DNA of 29,659 nt from a virus: positions 1 through 29,659 of IMG/VR virus record IMGVR_UViG_3300007539_000129. One strand, 5' to 3'. Under the pieces are notes generated by a model. It was not told where the DNA came from. It saw only the letters and a program-made list of their open reading frames with translations, and did no database searches. A program made the position numbers and the translations under genes. Of the stretch, positions 1 through 17,495 are shown piece after piece (the first letter of the stretch is position 1; each line of letters begins with the position of its first letter).

Positions 1-2
1 CT

Positions 3-2948
3 GCTGGCGCTACAGGTGCTGATGGTGCTCAAGGCATTCAAGGTGTTACTGGTGCTGATGGTGCTCAAGGCATTCAAGGTGTTACTGGTGCTGCTGGTGC
101 TCAAGGCGTTCAAGGTGTTACTGGTGCTGCTGGTGCTCAAGGCGTTCAAGGTGTTACTGGTGCTGCTGGTGCTGATGGTGCTACGGGTGCTCAAGGCATT
201 CAAGGTACTACTGGTGCTGCTGGTGCTACGGGTGCTCAAGGTGCTGCTGGCGCTACAGGTGCTGATGGTGCTCAAGGCATTCAAGGTGTTACTGGTGCTG
301 CCGGTGCTGATGGTACTGACGGTGCTACAGGTGCTCAAGGCATTCAAGGCATTACAGGTGCTGACGGTGCTGACGGTGCTACGGGGGCTCAAGGCATTCA
401 AGGTGTTACTGGTGCTACGGGTGCTGCTGGTGCTGATGGTGCTACGGGTGCTCAGGGCATTCAAGGGCTCACTGGCGCTGATGGTGCTACGGGTGCTCAA
501 GGTGCTGCTGGCGCTACAGGTGCTGATGGTGCTCAAGGCATTCAAGGTGTTACTGGTGCTGCCGGTGCTGATGGTGCTACGGGTGCTGCTGGTGCCGATG
601 GTGCCGACGGAGCTACTGGGGCTATAGGTCCTAGTGGTTCTACAGGTCCTCAAGGCATTACAGGTGCTGCAGGAGAATCTTCAGTAACTGGACCTCAAGG
701 GCCTGCTGGCGCTACAGGTGCTACGGGTGCTCAAGGTATTACAGGCCCTGCTGGTACAGGAACAACTGGTCCTGCTGGATCTACAGGCGCTACTGGAGGA
801 GGAAGTTCGGGACTTAGTTTTACAGCAAGCGGCTCTATCTCTGCGGGGAACCTAGTAACATTAAAATCGGGAGATACTGTAGGAACCGTTACTGTAACAA
901 GCCCTCTCAGTGTTCTGCAAACACCCACGGCTATAAGCAGCAGCGATAATAACTATGATTCCCGAGTTGTTTATCATCCTCACACGGATAAATTTATACA
1001 ATTTAACGCCTCAGGTCACTCTGATTATGTCATAGAGTATAGAGTTGGCACCAGAAATGGAAACGGAATGACGTGGGGAAGCCAGAGCCAGATCACTGGT
1101 GTTAATACTGATAATAGTAATGAGTACAGAGTAGCTCTATTACCAGTTTCTGGAAATTTAGCTTTTTTAACAGGCAAAAACGCCGGCGGCACAGGAGAAG
1201 GTCTATTTATTAGAGTAGGAACTTTCAACGGAACTTCTATATCTGTAGGAACTGCTGTACAAGTAGAAAATGCAAGTTCAGGATACACGAGTGCTGATTT
1301 TGAATTATCTTCTGACGAAAATGACAAGCTCCTGTTCTCCTATGAAAGAAATAATAGTAGAAAGTATGTGTGTGCTACTGTCTCCGGAACCACAGTTACA
1401 GTAGGAACCACTCTTGATACAGCTGTGAATACGTCTGATGAAGCACTTACCAATATATCAGCGGATAAATGGGTTGCATCTTATGTAGATAGTTCTGACA
1501 ATAGCGCTGTTTGTTTTGTTTTAAGTACTTCAGGCACTACAATTACTCAAGGAACTACTGTACAGTACGATACAGGCACTTTTCTCAATGCAGAGCTTGA
1601 GCGAATTGACTCTTCTAGCTTCCTAATAAGCAATGCGCGAGCGGCAACGGAAGATCGAGAAACTGTGGCTAGAGTAGGTGTAATTTCTAGCTCTAATACT
1701 ATTACTTTGGGCTCGGGAGTAGCTTTAGATAATTATTATACTACTAATGAAGGGCTAGAACTTATACAACTACCTAGTGGTATATTTATTTTAATAGGAC
1801 TTATGTATAGTGTTAGCTCATCTCGTGGGATAAGATATGTACCCATAAGTGTAGACGGAACAACTCCGATTTGGGGCTCTGTAACTGATATAGAAACCAC
1901 TGACGTTGATAGAGATCATAATCCATGGACTAATGTAGACATCAGACCTTCTGATAATTTTGTAGTTCTAGCCTATCACACCGATCGATCTGGTTCTCCT
2001 ACTTATTATGCGACCTTAGACGCGACTACGATCTCAGATGCGGCTAATTGGATTGGATTTGCTGACGAAACGGTTACTAATGGAGCCACCGTTAGTATAA
2101 CCTCTTTGGGCGGAGTAAATTCTTCTCAATCTGCTTTGATTGTAGATACGGATTATTATGTTAAGGGAGATGGATATCTATCTACCTTAGATAAAGGGTA
2201 TGGATTAATAGGCCGCGCTGTAGATACAGACTCTATTTTAGTTACAGAGGGCTCTGCAACTAATCAGATTGGAGCTACAGGTCCTACAGGTCCTACCGGC
2301 TCTGCAGGGTCTACGGGCGCTCAAGGTGTTACAGGTGCTGATGGTGCTGCTGGTGCTGATGGTGCTGATGGTGCTGCTGGTGCTACGGGCGCTCAAGGTG
2401 TTACAGGTGCCGATGGTGCTGCTGGTGCTACGGGCGCTCAAGGCATTCAAGGTGTTACTGGTGCTGCTGGTGCTACGGGCGCTCAAGGTGTTACAGGTGC
2501 TGCTGGTGCTCAAGGCATTCAAGGTATTACAGGTGCTCAAGGCATTCAAGGTGTTACAGGTACTGCTGGTGCTGCAGGTGCCGATGGTACCGATGGTACT
2601 ACAGGTCCTCAAGGACCTGCTGGAGCTACAGGTATTCAAGGTGCTGCTGGCGCTACAGGTACTCAAGGTGCTGCTGGCGCTACAGGTATTCAAGGCATTC
2701 AAGGCATTACAGGCTCTGCGGGTGCTGATGGAGCCGTCGGCGCTACAGGCCCATCAGGTGCTACGGGCGCTCAAGGTGTTACGGGTGCTGGCGGTACAGG
2801 AACAACTGGTCCTGCTGGGTCTACAGGCCCTGCTGGATCTACAGGCCCTGCTGGATCTACAGGGGCCTCTGGGGTTACATCAATAGATGGGGGATCAGCT
2901 AGCTCCACTTATATAGCGGCACAGATAGTAGATGGGGGAACTGCATAA
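3..2948 (+). CDS. Collagen-like tail fibre/adhesin, 5'-truncated by window edge
   Basis: The frame is open without a stop from the left edge to TAA at 2946-2948, giving at least 981 residues. The first in-frame ATG (1068) lies inside the middle domain and is not the true start. Visible order: Gly-X-Y collagen tract (residues 1 to about 267), a beta-rich middle region (about 268-756), a second Gly-X-Y tract (about 757-957) and a short C-terminus. The middle region repeats a pattern like [21 protein letters not shown] and [10 protein letters not shown] with roughly 50-60 residue spacing, which suggests a beta-propeller or beta-sandwich array. It ends in a [17 protein letters not shown]-like segment familiar from phage tail proteins. 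Pro occurs only in the X position of triplets; Ala, Gln, Thr and Asp fill most other sites. Phage collagen-like proteins usually form trimeric fibres; a fibre role here is inferred. The next gene overlaps by one base (TAATG), so the two are translationally coupled. Confidence 0.88.
221..314 (+). repeat. 94-bp exact direct repeat, copy 1
   Basis: Bases 221-314 are identical to 482-575 (offset 261, a multiple of 3, so the frame is kept). A partial copy of the same unit lies at 1-57. This suggests expansion of the collagen tract by recombination or slippage. Confidence 0.9.
482..575 (+). repeat. 94-bp exact direct repeat, copy 2
   Basis: Second copy of the 221-314 unit. Neighbouring triplets differ, so the duplicated block has clear borders within the collagen tract. 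Confidence 0.9.
2271..2870 (+). repeat. Collagen Gly-X-Y coding repeat tract 2
   Basis: About 200 codons of Gly-X-Y in the same frame as tract 1, starting with [13 protein letters not shown] and ending in repeated GPAGST units. It has the same Gly-Thr-Gly-Thr-Thr phase interruption (from 2793) followed by GPAGST as tract 1, with an identical 26-base DNA segment (2793-2818 against 753-778). The two tracts therefore probably share an origin. Confidence 0.95.
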
Positions 2949-4054
2949 TGGCTACTATTCAATTTAGGAGAGATACCTCAGGTAACTGGACTAGTAATGA
3001 TCCTACTCTACTGATCGGGGAGTTAGGAATAGAAACAGATACCTATAAAATAAAGATGGGAGACGGATCTACTTCGTGGACAAGTCTTGGGTACCTAAAT
3101 ATAAATGCAGGTCCTTATGCTATAGTACCTGTCCAAGGAACTACTAGGGGTTTTTCTGGCGGTGGGTATACTGGGGCTTCTGGACAGAATGCTATAGAGT
3201 CATTTAGCTTTACCACCGATGGTAATGCTTCCGATTGGGGCGATCTAACTGCCGTAGTACCTACCCAGGGTTGCCCTGGAATATCTGATGTAGCAAACTC
3301 GAATGTATATGTAAATCTTGGAAGCTGGCCTGCAACAGTTCCAGGCGGCACAACTGTAAATAAATTCAGCTCTGCATCCTCTTCAAATGCAACTAGTGGG
3401 GACGTAGTTGCCACTAGAAAACATGTTGGTGGTGGCGGTGCGATGAGCACAGAAAAAGGCTATTTTATGGGAGGAAGCGATCCTGCTGTAGGAGGGTACG
3501 ATGGAAAAATTAGCGCCTTCCCCTTTGCTTCAGAAGGAACTATGACCAATGTTGGAGATATGGTAGATCAAGCCCCTTTCAGTGCATATGGTTTTGGAGT
3601 AGCTATGAACCCCACTACCGTATATATGGCCGGAGGTGGTGATAATCCTACTGGTACTCCAGATATGATACAAAAATTTACATTTGCTTCAGAAGGAACA
3701 GCTACCGATAGTGGGGGAAACTTGATTGATACTACCAACGGAAGAGAGATAAAAGGGAATTATGGCCCTACTCACGGATTTGTTGTTGGGGGCCGTCCGG
3801 GTTTCGTGAATGTTATACAAAGCTTTCCATTTGCTTCGGAAGGAGACGGCGCTACTGATGTAGCAGATTTGACCACTAATCTAGCAAACTCTATGGAATC
3901 TTCTTCTACTACTCACGGTTATCAAGCAGGAGGTAGAACTCCTACCACTGTAAATACTATTCAAAAATTTGCTACTACAGGATCAGGAGCGAATGCTACC
4001 GATGTAGGGGACTTAGCCACTACTGCCTATGATGGAGTTAGTGGACAAGTATAG
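2948..4054 (+). CDS. Tail fibre protein, Mtd-N-like domain plus kelch-like repeats (paralogue 1)
   Basis: 368 residues. The first 50 ([14 protein letters not shown]... GELGIETDTYKIKMGDGST) match the short N-terminal domain shared by many phage fibres and the Bordetella phage major tropism determinant. About six repeats follow, each with a core like F-x-F-A-S-E-G-x-x-T-D-x-G-D-L and a Gly-rich strand (YMAGGG, HGFVVGG, HGYQAGG), suggesting a six-bladed kelch-like propeller. Such proteins are frequent in marine phage genomes; their ligand is unknown. The ATG overlaps the collagen gene's stop codon. Paralogues lie at 6562 and 7690, but this copy has diverged from them more than they have from each other. 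A receptor-binding role is inferred. Confidence 0.8.
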   Translation: MATIQFRRDTSGNWTSNDPTLLIGELGIETDTYKIKMGDGSTSWTSLGYLNINAGPYAIVPVQGTTRGFSGGGYTGASGQNAIESFSFTTDGNASDWGDLTAVVPTQGCPGISDVANSNVYVNLGSWPATVPGGTTVNKFSSASSSNATSGDVVATRKHVGGGGAMSTEKGYFMGGSDPAVGGYDGKISAFPFASEGTMTNVGDMVDQAPFSAYGFGVAMNPTTVYMAGGGDNPTGTPDMIQKFTFASEGTATDSGGNLIDTTNGREIKGNYGPTHGFVVGGRPGFVNVIQSFPFASEGDGATDVADLTTNLANSMESSSTTHGYQAGGRTPTTVNTIQKFATTGSGANATDVGDLATTAYDGVSGQV

Positions 4055-4084
4055 CACTTAATAATTTAATAAAGAGAAATAAAA

Positions 4085-5005
4085 ATGACCGATAAAAATG
4101 AAATTGCTATTTATGAGCAGATAAGAAAAGATGTATCCACGGTAGATGGCACAGAGTACACTGTCCCTATGTCAGCGGTATTTGGCAGGGGCACGATAGC
4201 AAAAACACAAAGTTTTGGCAGTAAAAGTTTAGCTGAAAATACTCAGCTAGTCGATAAAGCTATAGAAAATTCCAGAGAACTACAAAACATCTGGAATCAT
4301 AGCCATTCTCAGTGGGACTGGAAACATTTAAATCTGCACTATCATAGTCCTTATAAAAATATGCGACAGATAGGGGCAGAAATAAATAGTAAAAAGGCCG
4401 CTCTAAATGAAGCAAAATGGCGTCAGATAAAAAATGAAGTTAAAATTAGACAAATTGAGGAAAAGCTAGAAAAGGGTAACTTAGAGTATTGGAAAGAAGT
4501 TAAACTTAAAATCAAACTTACTCAGCAAAAAGAAGGAATGGCTGAAGGAATGCTTTATATTGAAGGTGCAATGAAAGATATTCTTGCACTAAATGACTTA
4601 TATGAACAACTTAAGAATAAAGTATCAGATTTTTCAGAAAACGATTATGAACAAGAAGAATCAAAAAATCACTTAAAAAGAAGCATTGTTCAGTGTATTA
4701 GAGATGTAAGACAGTCTGGCTCTATTACGAAGGGAGAACAGGAGTATTTAGAACAAATTGGAGTAAATCCAGGTAAGATGCAACTTTTGATACGACAGTA
4801 TTTGCAAAAAGAGATTGAAGATTCTTGGAGTACAAAAGGACTGCAAGATTTTGTTGCCGATATTGTTAACGATCTAATAGATATAGAAAAAGTTGATATA
4901 CAGAGAATGGAGATGATGGGCTTTGACCCTGATCCCGTACCTACTTACTCTTACGATAAAAAAATAGCACTCTTAAACAACAAAGGCCCAGAAGATAGTG
5001 AATAA
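4085..5005 (+). CDS. Conserved hypothetical tail-region protein with coiled coil
   Basis: 306 residues, no signal peptide or membrane segment. The N-terminal 90 residues hold a short His/Trp-rich stretch (NHSHSQWDWKHLNLHYH). A strongly charged region from about 95 to 200 (Lys, Glu, Gln and Ala rich) is predicted to be long helix or coiled coil. The C-terminus is acidic. I recognise the general type as a hypothetical protein found beside fibre genes in T4-like aquatic phages, but no function is established. A 30-base spacer with a weak purine-rich ribosome site (AAGAGAAAT) precedes the ATG, and the 3' end overlaps the oxygenase start by 8 bases, which argues for co-expression. It could be a structural connector or a fibre chaperone; this is a guess from the coiled coil and location. 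Confidence 0.7.
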   Translation: MTDKNEIAIYEQIRKDVSTVDGTEYTVPMSAVFGRGTIAKTQSFGSKSLAENTQLVDKAIENSRELQNIWNHSHSQWDWKHLNLHYHSPYKNMRQIGAEINSKKAALNEAKWRQIKNEVKIRQIEEKLEKGNLEYWKEVKLKIKLTQQKEGMAEGMLYIEGAMKDILALNDLYEQLKNKVSDFSENDYEQEESKNHLKRSIVQCIRDVRQSGSITKGEQEYLEQIGVNPGKMQLLIRQYLQKEIEDSWSTKGLQDFVADIVNDLIDIEKVDIQRMEMMGFDPDPVPTYSYDKKIALLNNKGPEDSE

Positions 5006-6197
5006 AGTATTAACAGAAGCAGGTAAAAAATTAGAAAAAGATAAGTATATATATACGAAAGGAGTTTTATCAGAAGATGTTTGTAAAAAATTAAGTGATC
5101 ATTTATTTGAATTACACAGTCGAAACGAGCTTGTGCAAGATGATCAGTGTCCTTCTTCTTACTCAGTATATGGAGATGAAAAATTTGAAAAAGTACTTTA
5201 TAATTTAGCATCAAGACTATCCGATACTATAGGTACAAAAGTATTGCCGACCTACTGTTACGCGAGACTATACCAAAAAGGAGAGATACTTCATAAACAT
5301 AAAGATAGACCTTCTTGTGAAATAAGTCTAACAGTAACATTAGACCATGACTCTTCCTCTATTATATGGCCTATAGTGATGGGAGACTCTGGTAATCTTA
5401 TCATAGAAAAAGGGGATGCAGTAGTTTATAAAGGGTGTGAGATTGAACATTATAGAGAGCAGTATAAAGGGAATTGGCAAACACAGGCTTTTTTCCATTT
5501 TGTAGATGCAGAAGGGCCTTTTAAAGACCTCCAGTTTGATGGAAGAGATTCTTTAGGCACTAAAAAGCAGGAGGTTATTGAACAAAAAAATAGGCCTCAT
5601 GTATATTTTAATACTATGATTTCTCAGTGTGACTCCTATCACCCTACACTGGAAGTTAGTGATTTAAAGTTTACGAAGGAAGAATGTTTAAAAATTATAG
5701 ACATTTCATCGAAAACGTATTCTGATAAAGCTAGGGTAGGTTCTTCAGTTCAGGACGCATACGTTCCTGAAGTAAGGGAGGTGAATAGGTACACCATACC
5801 TCCAACACCCGAATATTTTTGGATTTTTGAAAAAATTACTCAAGCAGTGTCTAGATTAAATTCTGAAAAATTTAAATTTGGTTTAACAGGAATAGTACAC
5901 GGCCTTGAATTACTTCATTATTCATCTAGTAATAAAAGCCATTATAATTGGCACTTAGATACAGGGATTGGAGACTCTACTAATAGAAAATTATCGGTAT
6001 CCGTTCAATTGAGTGAAGAAGCCTCTTATAAAGGAGGCGAGTTATTAGTAAATGATGGGAATATACGAGTGGGATCTTTTGAACAAGGATCGATAAATAT
6101 ATTTCCAAGTTACTTATTACATACTGTAACAGAAGTTACGGAAGGAGATAGATGGGCTATAGTAATTTGGATACACGGCTCAGATAGATTTAAATAG
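4998..6197 (+). CDS. Tandem double-domain 2-oxoglutarate/Fe(II) dioxygenase
   Basis: 399 residues starting at GTG, overlapping the previous gene by 8 bases. It has two double-stranded beta-helix oxygenase domains. Domain 1 (about 15-175) shows an H-x-D pair (H101, D103, in HKHKDRPSCEIS) and a distal His (H151), but no clear Arg about ten residues later for 2-oxoglutarate binding. Domain 2 (about 200-397) has the complete set: H319-x-D321, H375 and R385, plus GGELLVND and FPSYLLHTV typical of prolyl-4-hydroxylase-like proteins. These enzymes couple 2-oxoglutarate decarboxylation to hydroxylation of proteins, lipids or nucleotides. Phage members are common and mostly have no known substrate. 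Its place between fibre genes suggests modification of a tail protein or host surface molecule (inference). Confidence 0.85.
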   Translation: MNKVLTEAGKKLEKDKYIYTKGVLSEDVCKKLSDHLFELHSRNELVQDDQCPSSYSVYGDEKFEKVLYNLASRLSDTIGTKVLPTYCYARLYQKGEILHKHKDRPSCEISLTVTLDHDSSSIIWPIVMGDSGNLIIEKGDAVVYKGCEIEHYREQYKGNWQTQAFFHFVDAEGPFKDLQFDGRDSLGTKKQEVIEQKNRPHVYFNTMISQCDSYHPTLEVSDLKFTKEECLKIIDISSKTYSDKARVGSSVQDAYVPEVREVNRYTIPPTPEYFWIFEKITQAVSRLNSEKFKFGLTGIVHGLELLHYSSSNKSHYNWHLDTGIGDSTNRKLSVSVQLSEEASYKGGELLVNDGNIRVGSFEQGSINIFPSYLLHTVTEVTEGDRWAIVIWIHGSDRFK

Positions 6198-6206
6198 GAG
6201 ATAAAA

Positions 6207-6551
6207 ATGCCTGTAATTGAATATAAATTACATAAAGGACAGAATAACATACTAGAGACACCTAGCTTTGTGCAGGATGGAGGTTACTGGAAAAATCCTA
6301 ACAATCATACACTGCTCGGATGGTGCACACCAGAGGCCGATAGAGAATACTGGGTTCCAGATACAGTTACAGAACTTACAAAAGCTGAAGTAGTTTCAAG
6401 AGCTTTATCTATACATTCTGCAACACCCTATAGAGCTGAGGTAGAAGTAAACGGTGCTATAGAGGCTGGAGAAGAAATGACTACCGAACAAGTAACTAAT
6501 CAAATGGAAAATTGGTATGATAGTTTCGTAGCATCCAAAGCTAGTATCTAA
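6207..6551 (+). CDS. Small hypothetical protein of the tail module
   Basis: 114 residues, acidic, soluble, with a good ribosome site (AGGAG, 7 bases before ATG). Features: an aromatic N-terminal half (FVQDGGYWKNPNNHTLLGW), one Cys, and a helical C-terminal half ending in MENWYDSFVASKASI. I do not recognise a domain. Similar small proteins with a QDGGYW-like segment sit among fibre genes in aquatic phages, so a minor virion or fibre-assembly protein is possible. Tight spacing on both sides (9 and 10 bases) places it in the same transcription unit. Confidence 0.65.
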   Translation: MPVIEYKLHKGQNNILETPSFVQDGGYWKNPNNHTLLGWCTPEADREYWVPDTVTELTKAEVVSRALSIHSATPYRAEVEVNGAIEAGEEMTTEQVTNQMENWYDSFVASKASI

Positions 6552-6561
6552 GGAGTTTATT

Positions 6562-7680
6562 ATGGCGGTTCAAGTAAGAAGAGATACGGCAGCTGTCTGG
6601 CAGCTATTAGATCCTACACTAGCTGAAGGTGAGTTTGGTGTGGAAACTGATACTAGTAAGATAAAAATAGGAGACGGCACTAACTCTTGGAAATCATTAA
6701 CCTATTTATCAGATTCTGTAGCGCCATTAAGCCTAATAGTTCAAGGGTCTAATTATAACTATTCTGTTGCTGGTACTGCAAATACAGCTATTAATTCATC
6801 CCCAAGTCTGACTGATATTCAGAGATGGTCAGTAACATCTGATGGTAATGCTTCAGATATAGGCGATATAACAGCTGGAAGAGTAGCAGGAGCATCTGCT
6901 ACATCGACTACTCATGGCTATGTAGCAGGAGGGCTCATTGCTCCCCCAAATGCTCGTAATAACACTATCTATAAGTTTGCTTTCACTTCTCCTTATACAG
7001 CTACTGATGTTGGGGATCTATTAAGCCCTGTCTCTAATAACTTTGGATCAAGCTCTCCTACCGATGGGTACTCCACTGGGGGAAGAACTCCACCCGGATC
7101 TACACGACTTACTACTCACAATAAGTATCCTTTCGCATCTGATACAAACTCTACTGATGACGGAGATCTAGCTGACGGAAGAGAAGCATTAGGAGCAGGA
7201 CATTCTTCTGCTCTTGCTTCATATTTTTGTGGAGGCACCCCTTCTACCCCCACTAATCCCCAAGCTATTATAGACAAAATACCTTTTGCAGCTGGAGGCA
7301 CTTCTACTGATGTTGGAGATATGATAGAGTGGATCTCTCAGCACGCGGCATCTAATAGTCCAGGGACTGGTTATATTATGGGCTTTGCAGGCCAGGGTGG
7401 AGATCCTGAGACTAGTATTAATAGAGTTCAAACATTCTCTTTTGCATCAGACGGTGACGCGGAAGATACTCAAGACTTATTTGCTGGTGTGATATACACA
7501 GCAGGCTCTTCATCTACTACTTCGGGCTATGTTAGTGGAGGTAAGACTTCATATACTTCTCCAACTCCGCGTGTTTTAACTAATATGATTCAAAAGTTTC
7601 CTTTTGCAAATACTACAACGGGAACAGATGTAGGAGATCTTGCTACAGCAGTAACTCACAATCACGGTAATCAAAGTTAG
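6562..7680 (+). CDS. Tail fibre protein, Mtd-N-like domain plus kelch-like repeats (paralogue 2)
   Basis: 372 residues. The N-terminal Mtd-like domain (VQVRRDTAAVWQLLDP, GEFGVETDTSKIKIGDG) is followed by six kelch-like units: IQRWSVTSDGNASDIGD, IYKFAFTSPYTATDVGD, HNKYPFASDTNSTDDGD, IDKIPFAAGGTSTDVGD, VQTFSFASDGDAEDTQD and IQKFPFANTTTGTDVGD. Gly-rich strands such as HGYVAGG and SGYVSGG lie between them. The ribosome site AGGAG is 7 bases before ATG, and the same AGGAGTTTATTATG leader precedes paralogue 3. The first two units are nearly identical in DNA to paralogue 3 while loops between later units differ. A receptor-binding propeller is the likely role; the ligand is unknown. Confidence 0.8.
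   Translation: MAVQVRRDTAAVWQLLDPTLAEGEFGVETDTSKIKIGDGTNSWKSLTYLSDSVAPLSLIVQGSNYNYSVAGTANTAINSSPSLTDIQRWSVTSDGNASDIGDITAGRVAGASATSTTHGYVAGGLIAPPNARNNTIYKFAFTSPYTATDVGDLLSPVSNNFGSSSPTDGYSTGGRTPPGSTRLTTHNKYPFASDTNSTDDGDLADGREALGAGHSSALASYFCGGTPSTPTNPQAIIDKIPFAAGGTSTDVGDMIEWISQHAASNSPGTGYIMGFAGQGGDPETSINRVQTFSFASDGDAEDTQDLFAGVIYTAGSSSTTSGYVSGGKTSYTSPTPRVLTNMIQKFPFANTTTGTDVGDLATAVTHNHGNQS
6814..7019 (+). repeat. 206-bp near-identical block shared by fibre paralogues, copy 1
   Basis: Aligned to 7948-8153 (constant offset 1134) this block has only 3 mismatches, whereas sequence on both sides is clearly diverged. It encodes kelch units 1-2. Confidence 0.9.
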
Positions 7681-7689
7681 GAGTTTATT

Positions 7690-8796
7690 ATGCCAAATCA
7701 AATAAAAATTCGTAGAGATACTGCAAGCAACTTTCGAACAGAAGATCCTACTTTAGCGGCTGGAGAATTTGCTTTAGAGACTGATACTTCAAAAATAAAA
7801 GTCGGAGATGGATCTACAGCGTACAACAGCCTTCAATATATAGATGGAGATGCAGCAATATCTTTTCTTATTGTGCAAGGGTCTAACTATGGGTATGCTG
7901 TCGGCGGAAACACAGGTAATGGGATTGGTTCAACAGCAAGTCTCACCGATATTCAGAGATGGTCAGTAACATCTGATGGTAATGCTTCAGATATAGGCGA
8001 TATAACCGCTGGAAGAGTAGCAGGAGCATCTGCTACATCGACTACTCATGGCTATGTAGCAGGAGGGCTCATTGCTCCCCCAAATGTCCGTAATAACACT
8101 ATCTATAAGTTTGCTTTCACTTCTCCTTATACAGCTACTGATGTTGGGGATCTCACGAATGGGTATTTTAGAGGCATGGGCTCAAGCTCTCCTACCGATG
8201 GGTATCATACTGGAGGCAGGAGTCCTGCACTTTCTCCTCAGTACGCAACAATACATGAAAAATATCCTTTCGCATCTGATACAAACGCTACTGATAATGG
8301 AGATCTAACTGTGGGAAGATATAATACGGGAGCCGGAAACTCGTCGGGTAGTGCCTCCTACTTTGCTGGGGGCTATAGTGATACACAGAGCTTGACTAAT
8401 ATTATAGATAAAATACCTTTTGCAGCCGGGGGTGCCGCTACGGATGTCGGCGATCTACCTCTGTCCCTCTATAACAGTTCATCGTGTAGCAGTATAGATA
8501 ATGGCTATGTAACAGCTGTACAGAGCGACTACTTCTCAATTTTAAAATTTCCTTATGCGTCAGACACTGATGCTACAGATAGCCAAGACTTATATGACGG
8601 TGCTATGGTGGCAGCAGGCTCGTCTTCTACTACTTCAGGATATATTTCTGGAGGTAGACCCGCTGCTAGTCCTACTGGACCCGTAGGTAATGCAGGCAAT
8701 ACAATTCAAAAGTTTCCTTTTGCTAATACTACAACGGGAACAGATGTAGGAGACCTTGTTACATCAGTAACTCATCAGATAGGAAACCAAAGTTAA
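7690..8796 (+). CDS. Tail fibre protein, Mtd-N-like domain plus kelch-like repeats (paralogue 3)
   Basis: 368 residues with the architecture of the gene at 6562: Mtd-like N-terminus (IKIRRDTASNFRTEDP, GEFALETDTSKIKVGDG), six kelch-like units and a C-terminus ending in GNQS in both. Units 1-2 and the last unit are almost the same as in paralogue 2, while units 3-5 and their loops differ most. This is expected if the middle blades carry ligand specificity. The ribosome site overlaps the previous gene's stop codon (TAGGAG). The two genes are separated by 9 bases and probably arose by tandem duplication. Role as alternative receptor-binding proteins is inferred. Confidence 0.8.
   Translation: MPNQIKIRRDTASNFRTEDPTLAAGEFALETDTSKIKVGDGSTAYNSLQYIDGDAAISFLIVQGSNYGYAVGGNTGNGIGSTASLTDIQRWSVTSDGNASDIGDITAGRVAGASATSTTHGYVAGGLIAPPNVRNNTIYKFAFTSPYTATDVGDLTNGYFRGMGSSSPTDGYHTGGRSPALSPQYATIHEKYPFASDTNATDNGDLTVGRYNTGAGNSSGSASYFAGGYSDTQSLTNIIDKIPFAAGGAATDVGDLPLSLYNSSSCSSIDNGYVTAVQSDYFSILKFPYASDTDATDSQDLYDGAMVAAGSSSTTSGYISGGRPAASPTGPVGNAGNTIQKFPFANTTTGTDVGDLVTSVTHQIGNQS
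7948..8153 (+). repeat. 206-bp near-identical block shared by fibre paralogues, copy 2
   Basis: Partner of 6814-7019 with 3 mismatches (one at the ACA/ACC Thr codon, two turning Ala into Val). Consistent with recent recombination or gene conversion between the tandem genes. Confidence 0.9.
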
Positions 8797-8801
8797 TACT
8801 T

Positions 8802-9638
8802 ATGAAAAAAATACATTTTCTAGGAGGATTACCTAGATCTGGATCTACAGTCCTATTAAATATATTGCAACAAAATAGTAGTGTTTTTACTACTTCTTCT
8901 GATCCATTACCTGCAGGAGTTCATAAACATATTTTACAAAATTTTCGCGTCACAGAAAGATTTTTGTCAATGAGTGTAGAAGACGCAGATTGTGCTCTAT
9001 ATGGTATGACGATGGGAGCGATCGATGGGTGGTATAACGGCTTAACTAAAAAGCCTATTGTTATCTCAAAAGCTCGTGAATGGAATAGAATACATCATTT
9101 ACTTCCAGACTCAAAAAAAATAATCTTAGTTAGAGATCTTCGTGATGTGGTAGAAAGTTTTGATAAAATTAACTTTAAACTAAAAGCTCTTCACTCATTT
9201 GAAAAAGAGGGCACTGCATTATACGCTGCAATGACAGAAATGCAAAAATTTAATTATTATTTTAATACTCCTACTGCTCTTTCTGCTACTCTTAAAGAAG
9301 AGCTTCCTGCGGCTATGGAATTTTGGGAGCATGAAGGGAGGAAAGATAGTATTAAGTTTGTTCGCTTTGAAGATTTTGTTCGAGATCCTATACAAACTCT
9401 ATCAGATATAGCAAACTTTTTAGATATACCTGACTATGCCTATGATATCAATAATATATCTCAATCGAGTATGTATGAGCATGATAATAGCTACTACTCT
9501 GAGAGAACCGACCATAAAACTAAACCTGTTTTTATAAAAAATCATAAGACTACAAGAAGACTGAGTAACAGGATACACTCTCGCATACTAGACGAGTATA
9601 GATGGTTTTATGAGGCTTTTTATCCAGAGGAACTATAG
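8802..9638 (+). CDS. Sulfotransferase (PAPS-dependent)
   Basis: 278 residues. The 5'-phosphosulfate-binding loop GGLPRSGSTVLLN (residues 8-20) and the 3'-phosphate-binding segment IILVRDLRDVVESF (R111, S119) are the two signatures of the sulfotransferase fold. The C-terminal KFVRFEDFVRDPIQTLSDIANFLDI is typical of bacterial members. The family transfers sulfate from PAPS to hydroxyl or amino groups of carbohydrates, tyrosines or small molecules. No signal peptide or membrane anchor is visible, so it should be cytoplasmic. It is the last gene of the tail block, 5 bases after a fibre gene, with no good ribosome site, so translation may depend on coupling. The substrate could be a fibre protein, a host polysaccharide precursor or a metabolite; the sequence does not decide. 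Confidence 0.85.
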   Translation: MKKIHFLGGLPRSGSTVLLNILQQNSSVFTTSSDPLPAGVHKHILQNFRVTERFLSMSVEDADCALYGMTMGAIDGWYNGLTKKPIVISKAREWNRIHHLLPDSKKIILVRDLRDVVESFDKINFKLKALHSFEKEGTALYAAMTEMQKFNYYFNTPTALSATLKEELPAAMEFWEHEGRKDSIKFVRFEDFVRDPIQTLSDIANFLDIPDYAYDINNISQSSMYEHDNSYYSERTDHKTKPVFIKNHKTTRRLSNRIHSRILDEYRWFYEAFYPEEL

Positions 9639-9642: not shown

Positions 9643-9668
9643 AAAAAAGGCCCTTTCGGGCCCTTTTT
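9643..9668. terminator. Bidirectional intrinsic terminator between convergent blocks
   Basis: GGCCC-TTTC-GGGCC stem-loop flanked by an A-tract on the left and a T-tract on the right. The outer A/T runs can extend the stem past one mismatch. It lies between the sulfotransferase stop (9638) and the nrdB stop (9667-9669), which it overlaps. Both strands give a GC hairpin followed by U-rich RNA, so it should terminate both transcription units. Confidence 0.85.
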
Positions 9669-10626
9669 ACTTGAATATATCTTGCCAATTCCCTGTAGTA
9701 CTCGCTCGAGAGTACTCAGTAGCTCGATTCTCAAAAAAGTTAGCGTGCTCAACGCCATTCAACATATAGTCTAACCAAGGTAGAGGATTTTCTTCACTTG
9801 AAAAGATTTTCTTCATTCCTAGTCCAAGTAATCTACGGTCTGCAATATAACGAATATATGCTTTTACTTCCTCTGCTGTCAGTTCCGGTACATCAGCACC
9901 CTCAAAGCAAAGATCAATAAATGCGTCTTCTAACTCTACAGTTCGCTCTGCAGCACAGTAAATTTCATACTTTAAATCGTCATTCCATAGGTCTGGATTT
10001 TCTTTGATAAACGTTCGGAATAGTTGTGACATTCCTTCAACATGAAGGGTCTCATCGCGAACTGACCATGTCACAATCTGTCCCATACCTTTCATCAAGT
10101 TATGTCGAGGAAAGTTTAGTAGAATAGCAAAGCTACTAAATAACTGTACTCCTTCTGTAAATCCAGAATAGATAGCCATGGTTTTTGCAATATCCATCGG
10201 TGTATCCATTCCAAAGTTACTTAAGTGCTCGTGCTTGTCGAGCATTGCCTTATGTTCAAAGAACTTTTGATACTCATTATCCCCAAATCCTAGAGTTTCG
10301 AGAAGTAGCGAGTATGCCTCTTGATGCACTGCTTCCATTGCGGCGAAGGCCGACAACATCATTCGAACCTCTGGCTGCTTAAATGTAGGCAAATAGTGTT
10401 TTGCGTATCCACAGCACACATCTACATCTGCTTGAGTAAAGAAACGGAAGATGCTTGAAAGCAGCCTTCTATTTCCTTCACTCATTTTCTCTCTATAGTC
10501 CTTTAGATCATCAGCTAGATTAACTTCATCAGGAAGCCAATGCATATGCTGTTGAGACTTGTAATGCTCAAAAGCCCAAGGATAATTAAAGGGTTTATAA
10601 TATTCTCTTTCTGTTAATAAATTCAT
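9667..10626 (-). CDS. nrdB: Ribonucleotide reductase class I, beta (radical) subunit
   Basis: 319 residues. Di-iron ligands can be assigned: D67 (FTQADVD), E98 and H101 (MEAVHQEAY), E158 (FTEGVQLF), E192 and H195 (RDETLHVEG). The radical tyrosine position, four residues after the first His ligand, is Tyr (Y105), so this looks like a tyrosyl-radical enzyme. With NrdA it reduces ribonucleoside diphosphates to deoxy forms and supplies dNTPs for phage replication. The Shine-Dalgarno-like GGTGA overlaps the stop codon of the small ORF upstream. It is the last gene of the minus-strand block and ends at the bidirectional terminator. Confidence 0.96.
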   Translation of the reverse strand: MNLLTEREYYKPFNYPWAFEHYKSQQHMHWLPDEVNLADDLKDYREKMSEGNRRLLSSIFRFFTQADVDVCCGYAKHYLPTFKQPEVRMMLSAFAAMEAVHQEAYSLLLETLGFGDNEYQKFFEHKAMLDKHEHLSNFGMDTPMDIAKTMAIYSGFTEGVQLFSSFAILLNFPRHNLMKGMGQIVTWSVRDETLHVEGMSQLFRTFIKENPDLWNDDLKYEIYCAAERTVELEDAFIDLCFEGADVPELTAEEVKAYIRYIADRRLLGLGMKKIFSSEENPLPWLDYMLNGVEHANFFENRATEYSRASTTGNWQDIFK

Positions 10627-10630
10627 ATGC

Positions 10631-10816
10631 TCACCAATTATGTACCACGTTTGCCATAATAAAAAAACAGGTCATAAAGTTGACAATTACTATAGCCGTT
10701 CTAAGAATTGCTACTATATTATCATACTCTGCTGTTTTTTCATCAGAGAAACTGCCTATTGTATACTTCCAAATAGTCCAAATCTTAGCCTTCACAGGCA
10801 AAACAACCATCATCAT
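10631..10816 (-). CDS. Possible small membrane protein between nrdA and nrdB
   Basis: From ATG at 10816 this is 61 residues; the frame stays open to an ATG at 10852 (73 residues). Three consecutive Met codons at 10816, 10813 and 10810 make the exact start uncertain. It overlaps the 3' end of nrdA by 32 bases and stops 4 bases before nrdB, so it fills the gap exactly. The C-terminal half (NIVAILRTAIVIVNFMTCFFIMANVV) looks like one transmembrane helix; the middle is charged (SFSDEKTAEYDN). No homologue is recognised and no strong ribosome site is seen. It may be real by position and composition, or a chance open frame in AT-rich sequence. Confidence 0.42.
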   Translation of the reverse strand: MMMVVLPVKAKIWTIWKYTIGSFSDEKTAEYDNIVAILRTAIVIVNFMTCFFIMANVVHNW

Positions 10817-12554
10817 CCATACTTTCAAATATCTGCCTTCGTAAAGCTTCATCCGAAACGGTTTCTGCTCTTTTATACGCTTCGCTGCGTAGATAATAAA
10901 GGGTTTTTACTCCTTTCTTCCAAGCCATCATATGTGTTGCATGAAGCTCTTGTTTAGAGACATTTGCAGGAAAGAATACGTTTAGTGATTGACTTTGACA
11001 AATATACTGCTGTCTATCTCCCGCCATCTCTATTACCCAGCGCTGATCTAGTTCAACTGCCGTTTTAAAAACGTCCTTGTTCCAATCATCTAGAAAATCT
11101 AAATGCTGTACTGAGCCACCATTAGTTACGATACTCTTCCAGACTTCATCTGTATCCTGCCCTAAATCTTGTAAAATATTTTCAAGATATTCATTTTTAA
11201 GTAAGCTAGAGCCACTTTTAGTTTTTTGAGTAAAAGCATTAGCCCTGTAAGGCTCAATTGAAGGAGAAGTATTACCACAGATAATACTGCTACTGGCGTT
11301 AGGAGCAATAGCAAGAAGGTGAGCGTTACGGACACCATAACCTTCTCCATCAGGGCATTCGCCTCTTTCTTCAGCAAGCTGTCTTGTTGCACGTACTGCC
11401 TCCGATTTAATATGCTGAAACATTTGCATGTTTCTGCTCTTTGCCATAGCACTTTCAAATGGAATGCTGTGGCGTTGAAGATGGGCATGAAAACCCATTG
11501 CACCTAAACCTAAACTACGCTCTCTCATCGCACTAAACTTAGCACGAGACAGTTGATCCGGAGCATGTTGAACAAAATATTCGATAACATTATCCAACAT
11601 ACGAATAAGATCAGGAATAAATTTAGGGTCACTTTTCCACTCATCATATTCTTCTAGATTAACACTGGATAAACAACATACTGCGGTTCGGTCCTTGTCT
11701 GTAGGAAGTGTAATCTCTGAGCACAGATTTGAGTGATGAACACTTAGTCCTAAATTTTGCTGAAACTTTGGAATACCTTTATCTACAGTATCCTTGAACA
11801 TAATATAAGGCTCGCCTGTTTCTACTCGATTTTGAATAAGTTTTACCCAAAGTGTTTTTGCAGAAACAGTCTTTACTACCTTCTGCGAATGTGGGTCTAC
11901 TAGATCCCAAGAATCGTCAAAACCTTCGTGTCTTGTAGCATTCTCGATCAATTCCATAAATTTGTCAGATATAAGGATGCCATGATGAAGATTAACAGAC
12001 TTTCTGTTAATATCACCGCCTGTAGGTTTACGAATATCCAGAAACTCTTCAATTTCTGGATGAGAGATGTCAAGATATGCTGCATAGCTTCCTCTTCGTG
12101 TTACACCCTGGGAGAATGCCAACATTTCAGCATCCACCACTTTTAGAAAGGGAATTACTCCCGTACTTTCGGAGCCATTGCTCGTTTTTGAGCCTACACT
12201 CCTGACTTCGTTCCAGCATCCTCCTACTCCGCCTCCTACAGAAGATAGATAGGCATTTTCAGTATAATGATTTGTAATACCTTCTCTACTATCGTCAACA
12301 TAGTTTAGAAAGCAACTGATAGGCATTCCTCTTTTGGTACCTCCATTCGATAGAATAGGTGTAGAAAACATAAACCACAATTTACTGGCATAGTCATATA
12401 ATCTTTGTGCGTGTGCGTCATTATCCGCAAATGCTTTAGCCGCACGAACAAATGCATCTTGAGGGGAAGATTCCCCGTCTATTAAGTATCTATCTTCTAA
12501 AGTTTTTATACTAAACTCAGAAAGGTACTTGTCCCTAGTATATAAAATTTCCAC
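10785..12554 (-). CDS. nrdA: Ribonucleotide reductase class I, alpha (catalytic) subunit
   Basis: 589 residues from a GTG start with ribosome site AGAGGG. It lacks the N-terminal ATP-cone (activity-site) domain of E. coli NrdA, which explains its short length and implies no dATP shut-off through that domain. Catalytic residues seen: C81 (PISCFLN), the SNLCSE motif with N276, C278 and E280, the partner Cys in CCLSSVNL (C293), the Tyr pair in KTLYYLRS for radical transfer, and the C-terminal redox pair C584/C587 (DGCFACEG). It pairs with NrdB encoded downstream. Reduction by a host or phage thioredoxin/glutaredoxin is expected; none is seen in this window. Confidence 0.96.
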   Translation of the reverse strand: MEILYTRDKYLSEFSIKTLEDRYLIDGESSPQDAFVRAAKAFADNDAHAQRLYDYASKLWFMFSTPILSNGGTKRGMPISCFLNYVDDSREGITNHYTENAYLSSVGGGVGGCWNEVRSVGSKTSNGSESTGVIPFLKVVDAEMLAFSQGVTRRGSYAAYLDISHPEIEEFLDIRKPTGGDINRKSVNLHHGILISDKFMELIENATRHEGFDDSWDLVDPHSQKVVKTVSAKTLWVKLIQNRVETGEPYIMFKDTVDKGIPKFQQNLGLSVHHSNLCSEITLPTDKDRTAVCCLSSVNLEEYDEWKSDPKFIPDLIRMLDNVIEYFVQHAPDQLSRAKFSAMRERSLGLGAMGFHAHLQRHSIPFESAMAKSRNMQMFQHIKSEAVRATRQLAEERGECPDGEGYGVRNAHLLAIAPNASSSIICGNTSPSIEPYRANAFTQKTKSGSSLLKNEYLENILQDLGQDTDEVWKSIVTNGGSVQHLDFLDDWNKDVFKTAVELDQRWVIEMAGDRQQYICQSQSLNVFFPANVSKQELHATHMMAWKKGVKTLYYLRSEAYKRAETVSDEALRRQIFESMDDDGCFACEG

Positions 12555-12557
12555 TCA

Positions 12558-13394
12558 TTACCCTCTTAAAATATTAGCGCATTTATTATTAATGTCTTGA
12601 ATATTTTCCTGTCCTATTGCTTCTCTTGCATAGGTTTTTAAGTCCATCAACTCAAAGTTTCGTAGCAAAGTCTCTTTATTGTCATTCAATGTTTGTATGA
12701 ATTTATACTTACTATCTATAGGGCACGAATCGTAAATATCAAATACATTTCCATATTCTTTAACTAGTGAAGTTGCTCTTTTCTCTCCAATACCTGGGAT
12801 TCCTGGTATATTATCTCCTTTATCCCCCATTAAGCATTTTATAGTAATATAGTCATCTATCGAGAAATCTCTAGTATCATTCCAAGTATCAAATGTAGAC
12901 TCTTTTCTATTTATATAAGAAAACCTAGATACTTTAGGAGATACCAAGAGGTCCCAATCCCTATCAGAACTAATCAACCACATATGTTCAACGTCTGCTT
13001 CGCTTGCAAGATATCCTGCGATATCATCTGCTTCTACTCCCGTATATTGTAGGACAATTTCTTTTTCTGAAAAATAGTCCATAACATTTTTCATTTCTTC
13101 AAAGAACACTTGAAAAGCCTCTTTTTCTTGCTCACTTTGCTTTTCGTATTTTTCTTTTCTATTTAGCTTGTATTCTGGGTAAATTTCTTTTCTGTAAGAA
13201 CTGCTGCCTTTATCCCCCGCTATGATAATTGTACCACAGCTGTATGAGTCTGCTAGGGAGTTTACGGTTCTTACATATTCATCCGTAAAATTTATTTTTC
13301 CTTGATGTTTCCATCTAAACCCCAGATTCAACGAGTCTATAACTATCACACGTTTTTCGCTAGGTTTCTTTAAATTGTTAAACTGTATTGCCAT
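12558..13394 (-). CDS. 5'-3' exonuclease / flap endonuclease
   Basis: 278 residues. PIN-like core with metal ligands D20 (VIVIDSLN), D61 (AGDKGSSSYRKE, with R68 and K69), E121, D123 and D124 (VEADDIAG), and D144/D146 (SSDRDWD). The helix-three-turn-helix DNA-binding segment is GDKGDNIPGIPGIGEKRA (D191, D194). This is the family of T4 RNase H, T5 D15 and the PolA N-terminal 5' nuclease. The phage PolA lacks that 5' nuclease domain, so this separate protein probably removes RNA primers and flaps before ligation. The start overlaps the PDDEXK gene by 17 bases; nrdA follows after 3 bases. Confidence 0.93.
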   Translation of the reverse strand: MAIQFNNLKKPSEKRVIVIDSLNLGFRWKHQGKINFTDEYVRTVNSLADSYSCGTIIIAGDKGSSSYRKEIYPEYKLNRKEKYEKQSEQEKEAFQVFFEEMKNVMDYFSEKEIVLQYTGVEADDIAGYLASEADVEHMWLISSDRDWDLLVSPKVSRFSYINRKESTFDTWNDTRDFSIDDYITIKCLMGDKGDNIPGIPGIGEKRATSLVKEYGNVFDIYDSCPIDSKYKFIQTLNDNKETLLRNFELMDLKTYAREAIGQENIQDINNKCANILRG

Positions 13395-13830
13395 TATTTA
13401 TAAATCTCGGGGTTTCATAGGTTAGCCACTCATCTGCTATCATTACATAGCAACCTAGGTGTGATATATAAAAATATTTATCAACCTTTGTTGGCCTATC
13501 TGTGGTAGCTACAAATATCTTTGACCTGTTATACTTAAAGAACAACAGAGGTTTCTTAGAGGTTAAATCTCCTTGAGATACCGCCTGATTCCACCACCCA
13601 ATGAATTCGTTTGACTTATTAGTGAGTATTTTATCGTCAAAATGAGAGTTTTTGTAAAATTTAACCTCTATACAATAATTCATAGAAGTATCTGGTATGA
13701 ATAAATCTCCTTTCATAAAAGGAAGAGCTCCTGACATAGGAACTCTTTCAAAAGGAAGTTTAGTGTGCTTTCTTAAAAGCTCTCTTACCTGACGCTCTCC
13801 TTCCGCCCCTTTAGCTCTAGAATCCACCAT
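13378..13830 (-). CDS. PDDEXK-family nuclease, Holliday-junction-resolvase-like
   Basis: 150 residues. GAEGERQVRELL (acidic E10/E12), then FERVPMSGALPFMKGDLFIP (D42) and YCIEVKFYK (E55-V-K57) give the E...D...E-x-K arrangement of PDDEXK nucleases, closest in pattern to archaeal Hjc and VRR-NUC proteins. The likely job is cleavage of branched DNA made by recombination-dependent replication, in line with the neighbouring gp46/gp47 pair. AAGGA precedes the ATG. An in-frame open extension exists upstream but has no start codon, so the ATG at 13830 is kept. Confidence 0.72.
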   Translation of the reverse strand: MVDSRAKGAEGERQVRELLRKHTKLPFERVPMSGALPFMKGDLFIPDTSMNYCIEVKFYKNSHFDDKILTNKSNEFIGWWNQAVSQGDLTSKKPLLFFKYNRSKIFVATTDRPTKVDKYFYISHLGCYVMIADEWLTYETPRFINNGNTV

Positions 13831-13927
13831 TATTATATTCCTTGTAGTAAGAAATATACTCTGGCCATCTAAAATATGCTCTTCTGAAAGGGCACCAGTA
13901 GTTACCGGAATAAACGCTATGTGTCAT
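13817..13927 (-). CDS. Candidate 36-residue aromatic-rich small protein
   Basis: A short frame from ATG (13927-13925) to TAG (13819-13817). It bridges the only gene-free gap in this cluster. Its start overlaps the end of the 68-residue gene by 11 bases and its end overlaps the start of the nuclease gene by 14 bases, the packing typical of this phage. The product is strikingly rich in Tyr, Trp and Phe, with a single Cys (SGNYWCPFRRAYFRWPEY in the middle). It is too short for normal gene callers. No function is recognised, and the ribosome site is weak (GAGAA). Confidence 0.5.
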   Translation of the reverse strand: MTHSVYSGNYWCPFRRAYFRWPEYISYYKEYNNGGF

Positions 13928-14123
13928 CTAAATTTCTCAGAACAGAGAGTTTTTCTTCAAACTCAGCAATTTTTGCTATCTCACTCTCTACTGCACCCAT
14001 AATATCTGAGTGCTCACCAATACCTGCAGAATTTTGTAAATAAACCTCTAGGTTTACTCTGTGAAAATCTATTTTTCCAAGAAAATAACTTTCTGCTGCG
14101 GATAAAATCTTTTCTCTCATCAT
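13917..14123 (-). CDS. Small conserved phage protein (GIGEHSD motif)
   Basis: 68 residues, fully helical in appearance: MMREKILSAAESYFLGKID, then LQNSAGIGEHSDIMGAVES and a charged C-terminal helix. Small proteins with a central GI(G/A)EH-D/P motif are common near recombination genes in T4-like aquatic phages, with no known role. The ATGATG start overlaps the TGA stop of the gp46-like gene, so translation should be coupled to it. Confidence 0.75.
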   Translation of the reverse strand: MMREKILSAAESYFLGKIDFHRVNLEVYLQNSAGIGEHSDIMGAVESEIAKIAEFEEKLSVLRNLDDT

Positions 14124-15928
14124 TTTTCTAACCTACTTATATTTTTGTGTTTAATCACTTCAATCTTATCTAATAGAGGATGAGTCCATCCATGGGATAC
14201 CATATAGGTATTCAACTCCTCTTCTGATAATAAAACTTCTACTAGCTTTTCTCTACCTAATTCATCTATAACGTTTATAACTTCGTCTAGAAATAAAACG
14301 TTTAGTCTACTCTTAGAAATACTACTCATTAGTTTTCTTATAGACAATAAAGTAGCTGTATTTACTCTAGCTAATTCTCCACTACTAAGAGCTAGAATAT
14401 CTACTGCGTTACCATTATCTGATAACGAGACATTTAACTTATCTTTTTCTACAACAAATGAAAGACCAAATCTACCGTCACTTAGCTCCGATAGGTATGT
14501 ATTTGTCAAATCTTCCAGTTCTTTAACAAGATTTTCTAACTTATAAGCTAGCAACCCATTAGTAGAAAAAGCCCTTTTTAGTATATCTAAGTTAGAGAGC
14601 TTTTTCTCTTCTATAAACAAAGAATCTGACGCAGTACTTAAATCTGCTTTTAGCTTCTCAGACTGCTCTAGAAAGATACTAATTTTTGTATTGTGTACTC
14701 TTCTTTTTTCATTCTCTGAATGTATTTTATCTATTTCAGCTTTTAGAGTATCAATTTTTTTAGTAGTTTCTTCTATATCTCGTGAGATTTTGTCAGCATC
14801 TAATAGTTCAGTTGAAATATTAGGATTATACTTACTAAGTAAGTCTTCAAATTCTTTTTGCTTTGCCTTCTTTTCTGTTATCCTAGAATTAAGTTCTTTT
14901 ATACTATAAATTCTAAGTTCTAGACTTCTTATGGCCTCCTCTGCTTCTTGGCTTCGTTTTTGGCTTTGGCTTTTTAGGTTTGTAATAAGAGCTTGATTCA
15001 CTTCCTGTTGGCATGTTGGACACTCCTTATCTAGACTACTCAAATGAGCAATCTCTTTATCAGCCTCTCGCATTTCTCTATAATTGGCTCCTACTTCTGA
15101 CATTAAGTTGTCATATGACTGTAAACCTTTTTCTTCTTCTCCTACTAAACTAAAGTCAGACATGGAGATCTTAGACAATAGGTTTTTGTATGTATTATTT
15201 TCTCGAATTTTTTTGTTATTTTGCGAAATATCTTCCAAGTTTTTTCGTAGATGACGCAATTGTTCTTCATCTGTTTCCGATATTTTTGGTAGATTTAACA
15301 AAGGTTGGGCGATAGTACTATCGAGATTATTTCTATCTAACCAACTTTGTATTCTGTCAACGTCTGCTTTCAGACGAATTACATTATTCGATATATCCTT
15401 AGAAGCACTCTTGAATATCTCGTAGTATTTCTCGTACTCATCAATACCGAATAAGTCCGTTAAAAACTTCTTTCTATTAGCATCAGTAGCCGTTAAGAAT
15501 TGTAAGCTAGCGCCAGTATTTTGGTACACTAACTGCGAAAATGTCTTAAAGTCTAGCTTTAAGACGCTTTCTAGTGTTTTGTATGTATTTGTAGCAGTAT
15601 GACTAGAAATATCTTGATTATTTCTTAGTAATTTTACTTTTATGCTTCCTCTGCTACGCCTAACGTCAATACTATAATTATCCGTATCGACAGAAAACTC
15701 AAGTGATATATTATAGCCTTTATTATATTCTCTGTTCTGAATATCTGCTTTTTTGATATTTTTTGAGTTTTTATTGAACAGTACTTCTTCTAGGATCAGG
15801 GGTATAGACGACTTACCAGCACCGTTCTTACCGATTAACTGTGTTAAGTTATTTTCACTAAGATCTATACTATTTCCTGAACCATAACTAAAACAATTAT
15901 CCCATTGCAATGTTTTTAGAGTAATCAT
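14120..15928 (-). CDS. gp46/SbcC/Rad50-like recombination ATPase subunit
   Basis: 602 residues. Walker A GKNGAGKSS (33-41), a long coiled-coil centre, zinc-hook CPTC (303-306), ABC signature LSSGELARVN (514-523), Walker B LNVLFLDEV (D548, E549) and the H-loop His at 579 (MVSHGW). This is the full set of the SbcC/Rad50 family, whose phage member is T4 gp46. With the gp47-like nuclease encoded just upstream it resects DNA ends for recombination and replication restart. The length fits phage gp46 and is much shorter than E. coli SbcC. Its start overlaps the nuclease gene by 32 bases. Confidence 0.95.
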   Translation of the reverse strand: MITLKTLQWDNCFSYGSGNSIDLSENNLTQLIGKNGAGKSSIPLILEEVLFNKNSKNIKKADIQNREYNKGYNISLEFSVDTDNYSIDVRRSRGSIKVKLLRNNQDISSHTATNTYKTLESVLKLDFKTFSQLVYQNTGASLQFLTATDANRKKFLTDLFGIDEYEKYYEIFKSASKDISNNVIRLKADVDRIQSWLDRNNLDSTIAQPLLNLPKISETDEEQLRHLRKNLEDISQNNKKIRENNTYKNLLSKISMSDFSLVGEEEKGLQSYDNLMSEVGANYREMREADKEIAHLSSLDKECPTCQQEVNQALITNLKSQSQKRSQEAEEAIRSLELRIYSIKELNSRITEKKAKQKEFEDLLSKYNPNISTELLDADKISRDIEETTKKIDTLKAEIDKIHSENEKRRVHNTKISIFLEQSEKLKADLSTASDSLFIEEKKLSNLDILKRAFSTNGLLAYKLENLVKELEDLTNTYLSELSDGRFGLSFVVEKDKLNVSLSDNGNAVDILALSSGELARVNTATLLSIRKLMSSISKSRLNVLFLDEVINVIDELGREKLVEVLLSEEELNTYMVSHGWTHPLLDKIEVIKHKNISRLEK

Positions 15929-17485: not shown

Positions 17486-17495
17486 CTGTTGTTTT

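What the first reader, a model, noticed from the sequence alone, without database searches (positions are those of the whole stretch)
1..9638. Possible fibre-modification cassette: collagen-like fibre, double 2OG oxygenase and sulfotransferase in one operon
A collagen-like adhesin, three propeller fibres, a two-domain 2-oxoglutarate oxygenase and a PAPS sulfotransferase sit in one tightly packed unit. Seen directly: complete HxD...H...R set in oxygenase domain 2 and both PAPS motifs in the sulfotransferase. Known: such oxygenases hydroxylate proteins, and sulfotransferases act on hydroxyls. Inferred: the phage may hydroxylate and/or sulfate its own fibres, or a host glycan, to tune adsorption. 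Against classical collagen proline 4-hydroxylation: Pro here is only in the X position of triplets, never Y. Thr, Asp or an unrelated target would be needed.
Basis: partly seen in the sequence, partly recalled or inferred. Interest (0 to 1): 0.75.

Follow-up and report, generated by a model that had tools for sequence, protein, structure and literature searches.

The report
Phage cassette that may decorate fibres
In this uncultured phage, and in dozens of related uncultured phages, genes for receptor-binding propeller-like tail fibres travel together with a two-headed hydroxylating enzyme and often a sulfate-adding enzyme, which suggests (but does not prove) that these viruses chemically decorate their own fibres.

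Summary
The gene cluster is real and conserved, but its conserved partner is not the collagen fibre. The window is the end of a T5-like phage contig. On the + strand, packed with gaps of -8 to +30 bases: a 5'-truncated collagen-like fibre, three Mtd_N + repeat (kelch-like) fibres, an unrecognised helical protein (ORF306), a two-domain 2OG oxygenase, a small unrecognised protein (ORF114) and a PAPS sulfotransferase, then a terminator. In 45 non-redundant loci with the fused oxygenase, propeller fibres lie within 5 genes in 36, ORF306 in 35, ORF114 in 32, the sulfotransferase in 17, collagen in only 2 (this phage and its sister). Related sulfotransferases sit directly beside a propeller fibre in 23 of 53 cases (4.8 expected). 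The module occurs in T5-like and T4-like phages; ORF306 and ORF114 have no match in 50,697 phage records. Both oxygenase domains keep all metal ligands; domain 1 is labelled 'ferrochelatase' in cyanophages, apparently wrongly. Best explanation: independent hydroxylation and sulfation of the virion's own propeller fibres (about 50%). Main rivals: host surface glycan modification, and unlinked metabolic genes. An obligate hydroxylate-then-sulfate relay is unlikely. No substrate was shown.

The parts
3..2948 (+). Collagen-like fibre (5' end lost at contig start); two GXY blocks around a globular middle
   Evidence: Pfam PF01391 5.6e-64; GXY composition; near the fused oxygenase only in this phage and sister L002 among 45 loci
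2948..4054 (+). Mtd_N-headed fibre with kelch-like repeats (1)
   Evidence: Pfam Mtd_N 5e-13; repeats
4085..5005 (+). ORF306, helical protein of unknown function, conserved partner of the oxygenase (35 of 45 loci)
   Evidence: no match in 50,697 phage records
4998..6197 (+). Fused double 2OG-Fe(II) oxygenase: domain 1 about residues 1-190 (phrog_2954, labelled 'ferrochelatase'), domain 2 about residues 201-399 (PF13640)
6207..6551 (+). ORF114, small conserved protein of unknown function (candidate fibre-assembly factor, inferred from position only)
   Evidence: homologue has no match in phage records
6562..7680 (+). Mtd_N-headed fibre with kelch-like repeats (2)
   Evidence: Pfam Mtd_N 1.7e-12
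7690..8796 (+). Mtd_N-headed fibre with kelch-like repeats (3)
   Evidence: Pfam Mtd_N 3.1e-13
8802..9638 (+). PAPS-dependent sulfotransferase (Sulfotransfer_3)
   Evidence: Pfam PF13469 1.3e-15; PAPS motifs
9649..9662 (+). Probable intrinsic terminator closing the unit

Best explanation
The unit is a virion-decoration cassette. Shown: the fused double 2OG oxygenase is a regular neighbour of propeller-type receptor-binding fibres, together with ORF306 and ORF114; the sulfotransferase is an optional addition usually placed beside a propeller fibre; the enzymes keep their catalytic or cofactor motifs; the module is shared by T5-like and T4-like phages. Inferred: late in infection the oxygenase uses Fe(II), O2 and 2-oxoglutarate to hydroxylate side chains repeated in each blade of the fibres, and the sulfotransferase, using host PAPS, independently puts sulfate on Tyr/Ser/Thr or other hydroxyls of the same fibres, changing charge and chemistry of the receptor-binding surface. 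ORF306 and ORF114 may serve the enzymes or fibre assembly (inferred from position only).
For: Fibre within 5 genes of the fused oxygenase in 36/45 non-redundant loci, against 1 of 39 loci with the unfused form (Fisher p 5e-14) and 1 of 32 when at least 3 genes are held on each side. Sulfotransferase directly beside a propeller fibre in 23/53 loci against a mean of 4.8 and a maximum of 12 in 2,000 draws of other genes from the same loci; this includes two repeat types, kelch-like and RCC1 (RCC1 confirmed by Pfam). Same module in T5-like contigs (window, L002, L098, L192) and in T4-like contigs close to neck genes gp13/gp14. Structure search of the double oxygenase: best solved matches include the tandem-domain ribosomal prolyl hydroxylases Tpa1 and OGFOD1, the P. 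putida EF-Tu prolyl hydroxylase and PHD2, all protein hydroxylases. Best solved sequence matches of the sulfotransferase profile are protein-tyrosine sulfotransferases. Operon layout and end terminator.
Against: No direct evidence of modification. Fibre composition does not differ between loci with and without the sulfotransferase after correction for 20 tests. The catalytic Glu known for tyrosine sulfotransferases is not conserved here. In one phage type (L227-L229; records up to 102,699 bases) sulfotransferase + oxygenase + ORF306 stand together with no kelch-like fibre in the record. Some cyanophage-type clusters add glycosyltransferases, which fits glycan work too. PiuC, an iron-uptake factor and not known here as a protein hydroxylase, is also among the close structural matches. 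The loci are related by descent, so counts are not fully independent.
Confidence: 0.5

Rival explanations
1. Host-surface glycan modification: the sulfotransferase (and perhaps the oxygenase) changes the host's surface polysaccharide during infection, for example to stop re-adsorption of progeny or superinfection; the genes lie by the fibres because that region is where host-recognition functions are swapped.
For: Glycosyltransferases of host-recognition clusters of pelagimyophages, in the same genome position before gp14, were interpreted this way (PMC7029224). Related clusters around sulfotransferases hold GT25, GT9-like and group-1 glycosyltransferases; sulfotransferases act on sugars in many systems (own knowledge).
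Against: The window cassette itself has no glycosyltransferase; the genes sit inside the fibre operon; the oxygenase's best structural matches are mostly protein hydroxylases.
Confidence: 0.27
2. Ordinary metabolic genes parked in a variable region: the oxygenases tune 2-oxoglutarate or act on other cell targets, and adjacency to fibres is a hotspot effect with no functional link.
For: This is the published guess for cyanophage 2OG oxygenases, which can number 24 in one genome (PMC9602691); the unfused family is usually away from detected propeller fibres.
Against: The fused form keeps the same partners (fibres, ORF306, ORF114) at about 38-69% identity to the window protein, in rearranged orders and in two phage lineages.
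Confidence: 0.17
3. One reading: collagen fibre hydroxylated and then sulfated by the pair in series.
For: All genes are in one unit here and in L002; [quoted passage not shown]
Against: Collagen in 2 of 45 loci; the enzymes often occur apart; no Pro in the Y position.
Confidence: 0.05

Closest known systems
Cyanophage / pelagiphage 2OG-Fe(II) oxygenases and 'ferrochelatase' genes (phrog_2954, phrog_61; e.g. P-RSM4, HTVC033P)
   Same: Homologous domains; the two are often neighbours there and lie near fibre or tail genes in P-RSM4 and HTVC033P
   Different: About 28-35% identity, usually as separate genes; no ORF306/ORF114 match in phage records; published role is metabolic
Tpa1 / OGFOD1 tandem-domain ribosomal prolyl hydroxylases
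   Same: Two oxygenase-fold domains in one chain; top structure match
   Different: Low overall superposition (TM about 0.3); here both domains keep metal ligands, whereas one domain is inactive in Tpa1/OGFOD1 (own knowledge); about 10% identity
Protein-tyrosine sulfotransferases TPST1/2
   Same: Closest solved relatives by profile, shared PAPS motifs
   Different: Catalytic Glu not conserved
Pelagimyophage/cyanomyophage host recognition cluster
   Same: Same genome region (before neck genes) in T4-like carriers, fibres mixed with modifying enzymes
   Different: Described for glycosyltransferases; the paper does not mention sulfotransferases
Phage virion glycosylation (mycobacteriophage glycosyltransferases)
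   Same: Phage enzymes thought to decorate the phage's own virion proteins (titles and abstracts only)
   Different: Glycosylation, not hydroxylation or sulfation

Membership tests
2OG-Fe(II) oxygenase superfamily (domain 2) | HxD...H metal triad plus 2OG-binding Arg/Lys, double-stranded beta-helix | tested here: met
   H319, D321, H375 in 97/97 aligned, R385 in 95 + K in 2; PF13640 2.2e-14; model and fold match
2OG-Fe(II) oxygenase superfamily (domain 1) | HxD...H triad, basic residue for 2OG, beta-helix | tested here: met
   H101, D103, H151, R153 in 103/103 homologues; strand-rich model and tandem-domain fold match; not recognised by Pfam; the role of R153 in 2OG binding is inferred
Ferrochelatase (database label of domain 1) | Match to the ferrochelatase family | tested here: not met
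   No ferrochelatase match in Pfam at E<=1; oxygenase motif instead
Collagen prolyl 4-hydroxylase system | Collagen substrate with Pro in Y position, conserved with the enzyme | tested here: not met
   Pro only in X; collagen in 2/45 loci
PAPS-dependent sulfotransferase (Sulfotransfer_3) | 5' and 3' PAPS-binding motifs | tested here: met
   PF13469 1.3e-15; R12, S15, R111, S119 conserved
Protein-tyrosine sulfotransferase | Catalytic Glu after the first PAPS motif | tested here: not met
   Aligned columns are T/S/N/D/C, not Glu
Mtd_N fibre with beta-propeller body | Mtd_N head and 6-7 repeated blades | tested here: inconclusive
   Mtd_N met; six 46-47-aa repeats in L002 fibres; no Pfam Kelch match and no structure model made

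The most novel reading that the evidence does not exclude
A phage-encoded system that hydroxylates and sulfates its own receptor-binding propeller fibres, passed as a module between T5-like and T4-like phages; no phage fibre hydroxylation or sulfation was found in the literature searched.
Probability: 0.4. Interest if true: 0.82.

Novelty: new variant of a known kind. Interest (0 to 1): 0.62.

Why it matters
Cyanophages and other aquatic phages carry many 2OG oxygenases whose purpose is unknown and usually called metabolic. A conserved fibre-linked module gives a concrete, testable substrate and a chemical route to change host recognition without changing the fibre's protein sequence. It also flags a probable annotation error ('ferrochelatase') that spreads through cyanophage genomes and auxiliary metabolic gene lists.

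Tried and rejected
Single-sequence scans of viral contigs for the sulfotransferase (nothing) and oxygenase (one locus) were too narrow; alignments solved this. ORF306 by structure: model pLDDT 70, no match below E 0.001 in the viral library, no convincing solved relative. Fibre composition as a pointer to the modified residue: nothing after correction. Tyrosine sulfotransferase membership: closest solved relative, but catalytic Glu missing. Collagen as the conserved substrate: rejected. Obligate hydroxylate-then-sulfate relay: unlikely because either enzyme occurs alone. Literature searches for phage fibre hydroxylation or sulfation found nothing to the point in an open-access library.

Full report
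What the window is. The record is a 29,659-base virus contig with nothing longer held. The minus strand 9,667-29,659 carries ribonucleotide reductase, flap nuclease, recombination nuclease pair, helicases, a family A DNA polymerase, primase and a split NAD ligase (some of these names from own reading of the translations). The polymerase matches T5-like phages over its whole length at about 42-43% identity, so I call the phage T5-like. The cassette is on the plus strand, converging with the reductase genes, and ends at a good terminator candidate at 9,649-9,662.

The observation. Corrections: the collagen frame is cut by the contig start; domain 1 of the oxygenase is also a complete oxygenase by motif; and two further genes, ORF306 and ORF114, belong to the unit. 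Triplet composition confirms that proline is only in X positions: 13 times in X, none in Y.

Is it conserved? A sister contig (L002) carries the same gene order, with oxygenase 69%, sulfotransferase 68% and ORF306 78% identical. Wider scans with alignments gave 80 loci each for the sulfotransferase, domain 1 and the fused oxygenase. After removing sequences over 85% identical, 45 fused-oxygenase loci remained: propeller fibre within five genes in 36, ORF306 in 35, ORF114 in 32, sulfotransferase in 17, collagen in 2. The two collagen loci are the window and L002. A control set, homologues of domain 1 not fused to domain 2, had a propeller near in 1 of 39, or 1 of 32 when at least three genes are held on each side. 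Fisher's test on 36/45 against 1/39 gives 5e-14, with the caution that loci are related and contig lengths differ. Sulfotransferase genes lie directly next to a propeller fibre in 23 of 53 non-redundant loci; choosing other genes from the same loci gives 4.8 on average and at most 12 in 2,000 trials. The fibres are of two types, kelch-like repeats and RCC1 repeats; RCC1 is confirmed by Pfam at 4e-61. The kelch-like assignment and the propeller shape are inferred from the repeats.

Two phage lineages. T5-like carriers are the window, L002, L098 and L192; the last two share the reductase small subunit at 91% identity but lack the sulfotransferase in the records held. In T4-like carriers the module lies near neck genes gp13 and gp14 or near gp17-gp19 (gene names from own reading of the translations). 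The window's sulfotransferase is 65% identical to that of T4-like L016 while the oxygenases are only 45% identical, so the parts have probably been exchanged separately. ORF306 and ORF114 have no match in 50,697 phage records, so the full module is known here only from uncultured viruses. Partial versions exist in cultured cyanophages: a sulfotransferase beside propeller-like genes in S-SKS1 and S-SRM01.

What the enzymes are. Both oxygenase domains keep their metal ligands in all aligned homologues. The model of the double protein is good (mean pLDDT 80). Its best matches among solved structures are Tpa1 and OGFOD1, then single-domain enzymes, mostly protein hydroxylases; superposition over both domains is poor, so this speaks for the fold and at most hints at the kind of substrate. 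Domain 1 is labelled ferrochelatase in PHROGs and in many cyanophage records; neither its motifs nor Pfam support that. In several loci a third oxygenase (PF13759) lies between sulfotransferase and fused oxygenase. The sulfotransferase profile finds protein-tyrosine sulfotransferases first, but their catalytic Glu is missing.

How it probably works. I favour modification of the propeller fibres, because they and not collagen are the constant partner. The two enzymes are unlikely to be an obligate relay: 28 of 45 oxygenase loci show no sulfotransferase within five genes, and about eight or nine fibre-adjacent sulfotransferases have no detected oxygenase within five genes. Contig ends can hide genes, so these absences are upper bounds. 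No residue could be singled out: Tyr in the GYxxGG motif is conserved in fibres with and without the sulfotransferase, and composition does not differ after correction. The counter-example L227-L229, with three module genes but no kelch-like fibre in records up to 102,699 bases, and the glycosyltransferases in some clusters keep the glycan explanation alive. A host that makes PAPS is needed (own knowledge).

Literature. The library holds only open-access papers. It gave the metabolic explanation for cyanophage oxygenases (PMC9602691), the glycan explanation for genes in the host recognition cluster (PMC7029224) and a remark that viral prolyl hydroxylases and collagen fibres may be linked (PMC9301287). 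None of the papers read describes this module.

Noticed in passing
phrog_2954 and cyanophage records such as P-RSM4 (L007:8525-9115): The annotation 'ferrochelatase' is attached to a 2OG oxygenase domain with an invariant HxD...H...R set; probably a propagated error.
   Followed up: partly
L054, L057, L059, L061, L066, L074, L091: Sulfotransferase carries about 310 extra C-terminal residues (weak TPR match) and directly follows an RCC1 fibre.
   Followed up: partly
window 27356-28114 (-): Weak sialyltransferase-like (CST-I) match in a gene among the replication genes; possible glycosyltransferase.
   Followed up: no
window 28827-29417 (-): Peroxiredoxin/redoxin gene in a phage.
   Followed up: no
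L246 1-207 and 1856-3094: Contig in a Bacteroidetes MAG with the same reductase genes (80-89% identity): the fused oxygenase lies next to the reductase, and the protein end at the contig start is rich in Pro, Thr and Tyr.
   Followed up: no
L228 (102,699-base record): Sulfotransferase, fused oxygenase and ORF306 together away from recognisable fibre genes, without kelch-like fibres in the record.
   Followed up: partly
L004, L030, L032, L035: RCC1 fibres, several 2OG oxygenases and a sulfotransferase in one cluster, with GT25 or other glycosyltransferases; GT25 also includes enzymes that glycosylate hydroxylysine in animal collagen (own knowledge).
   Followed up: partly
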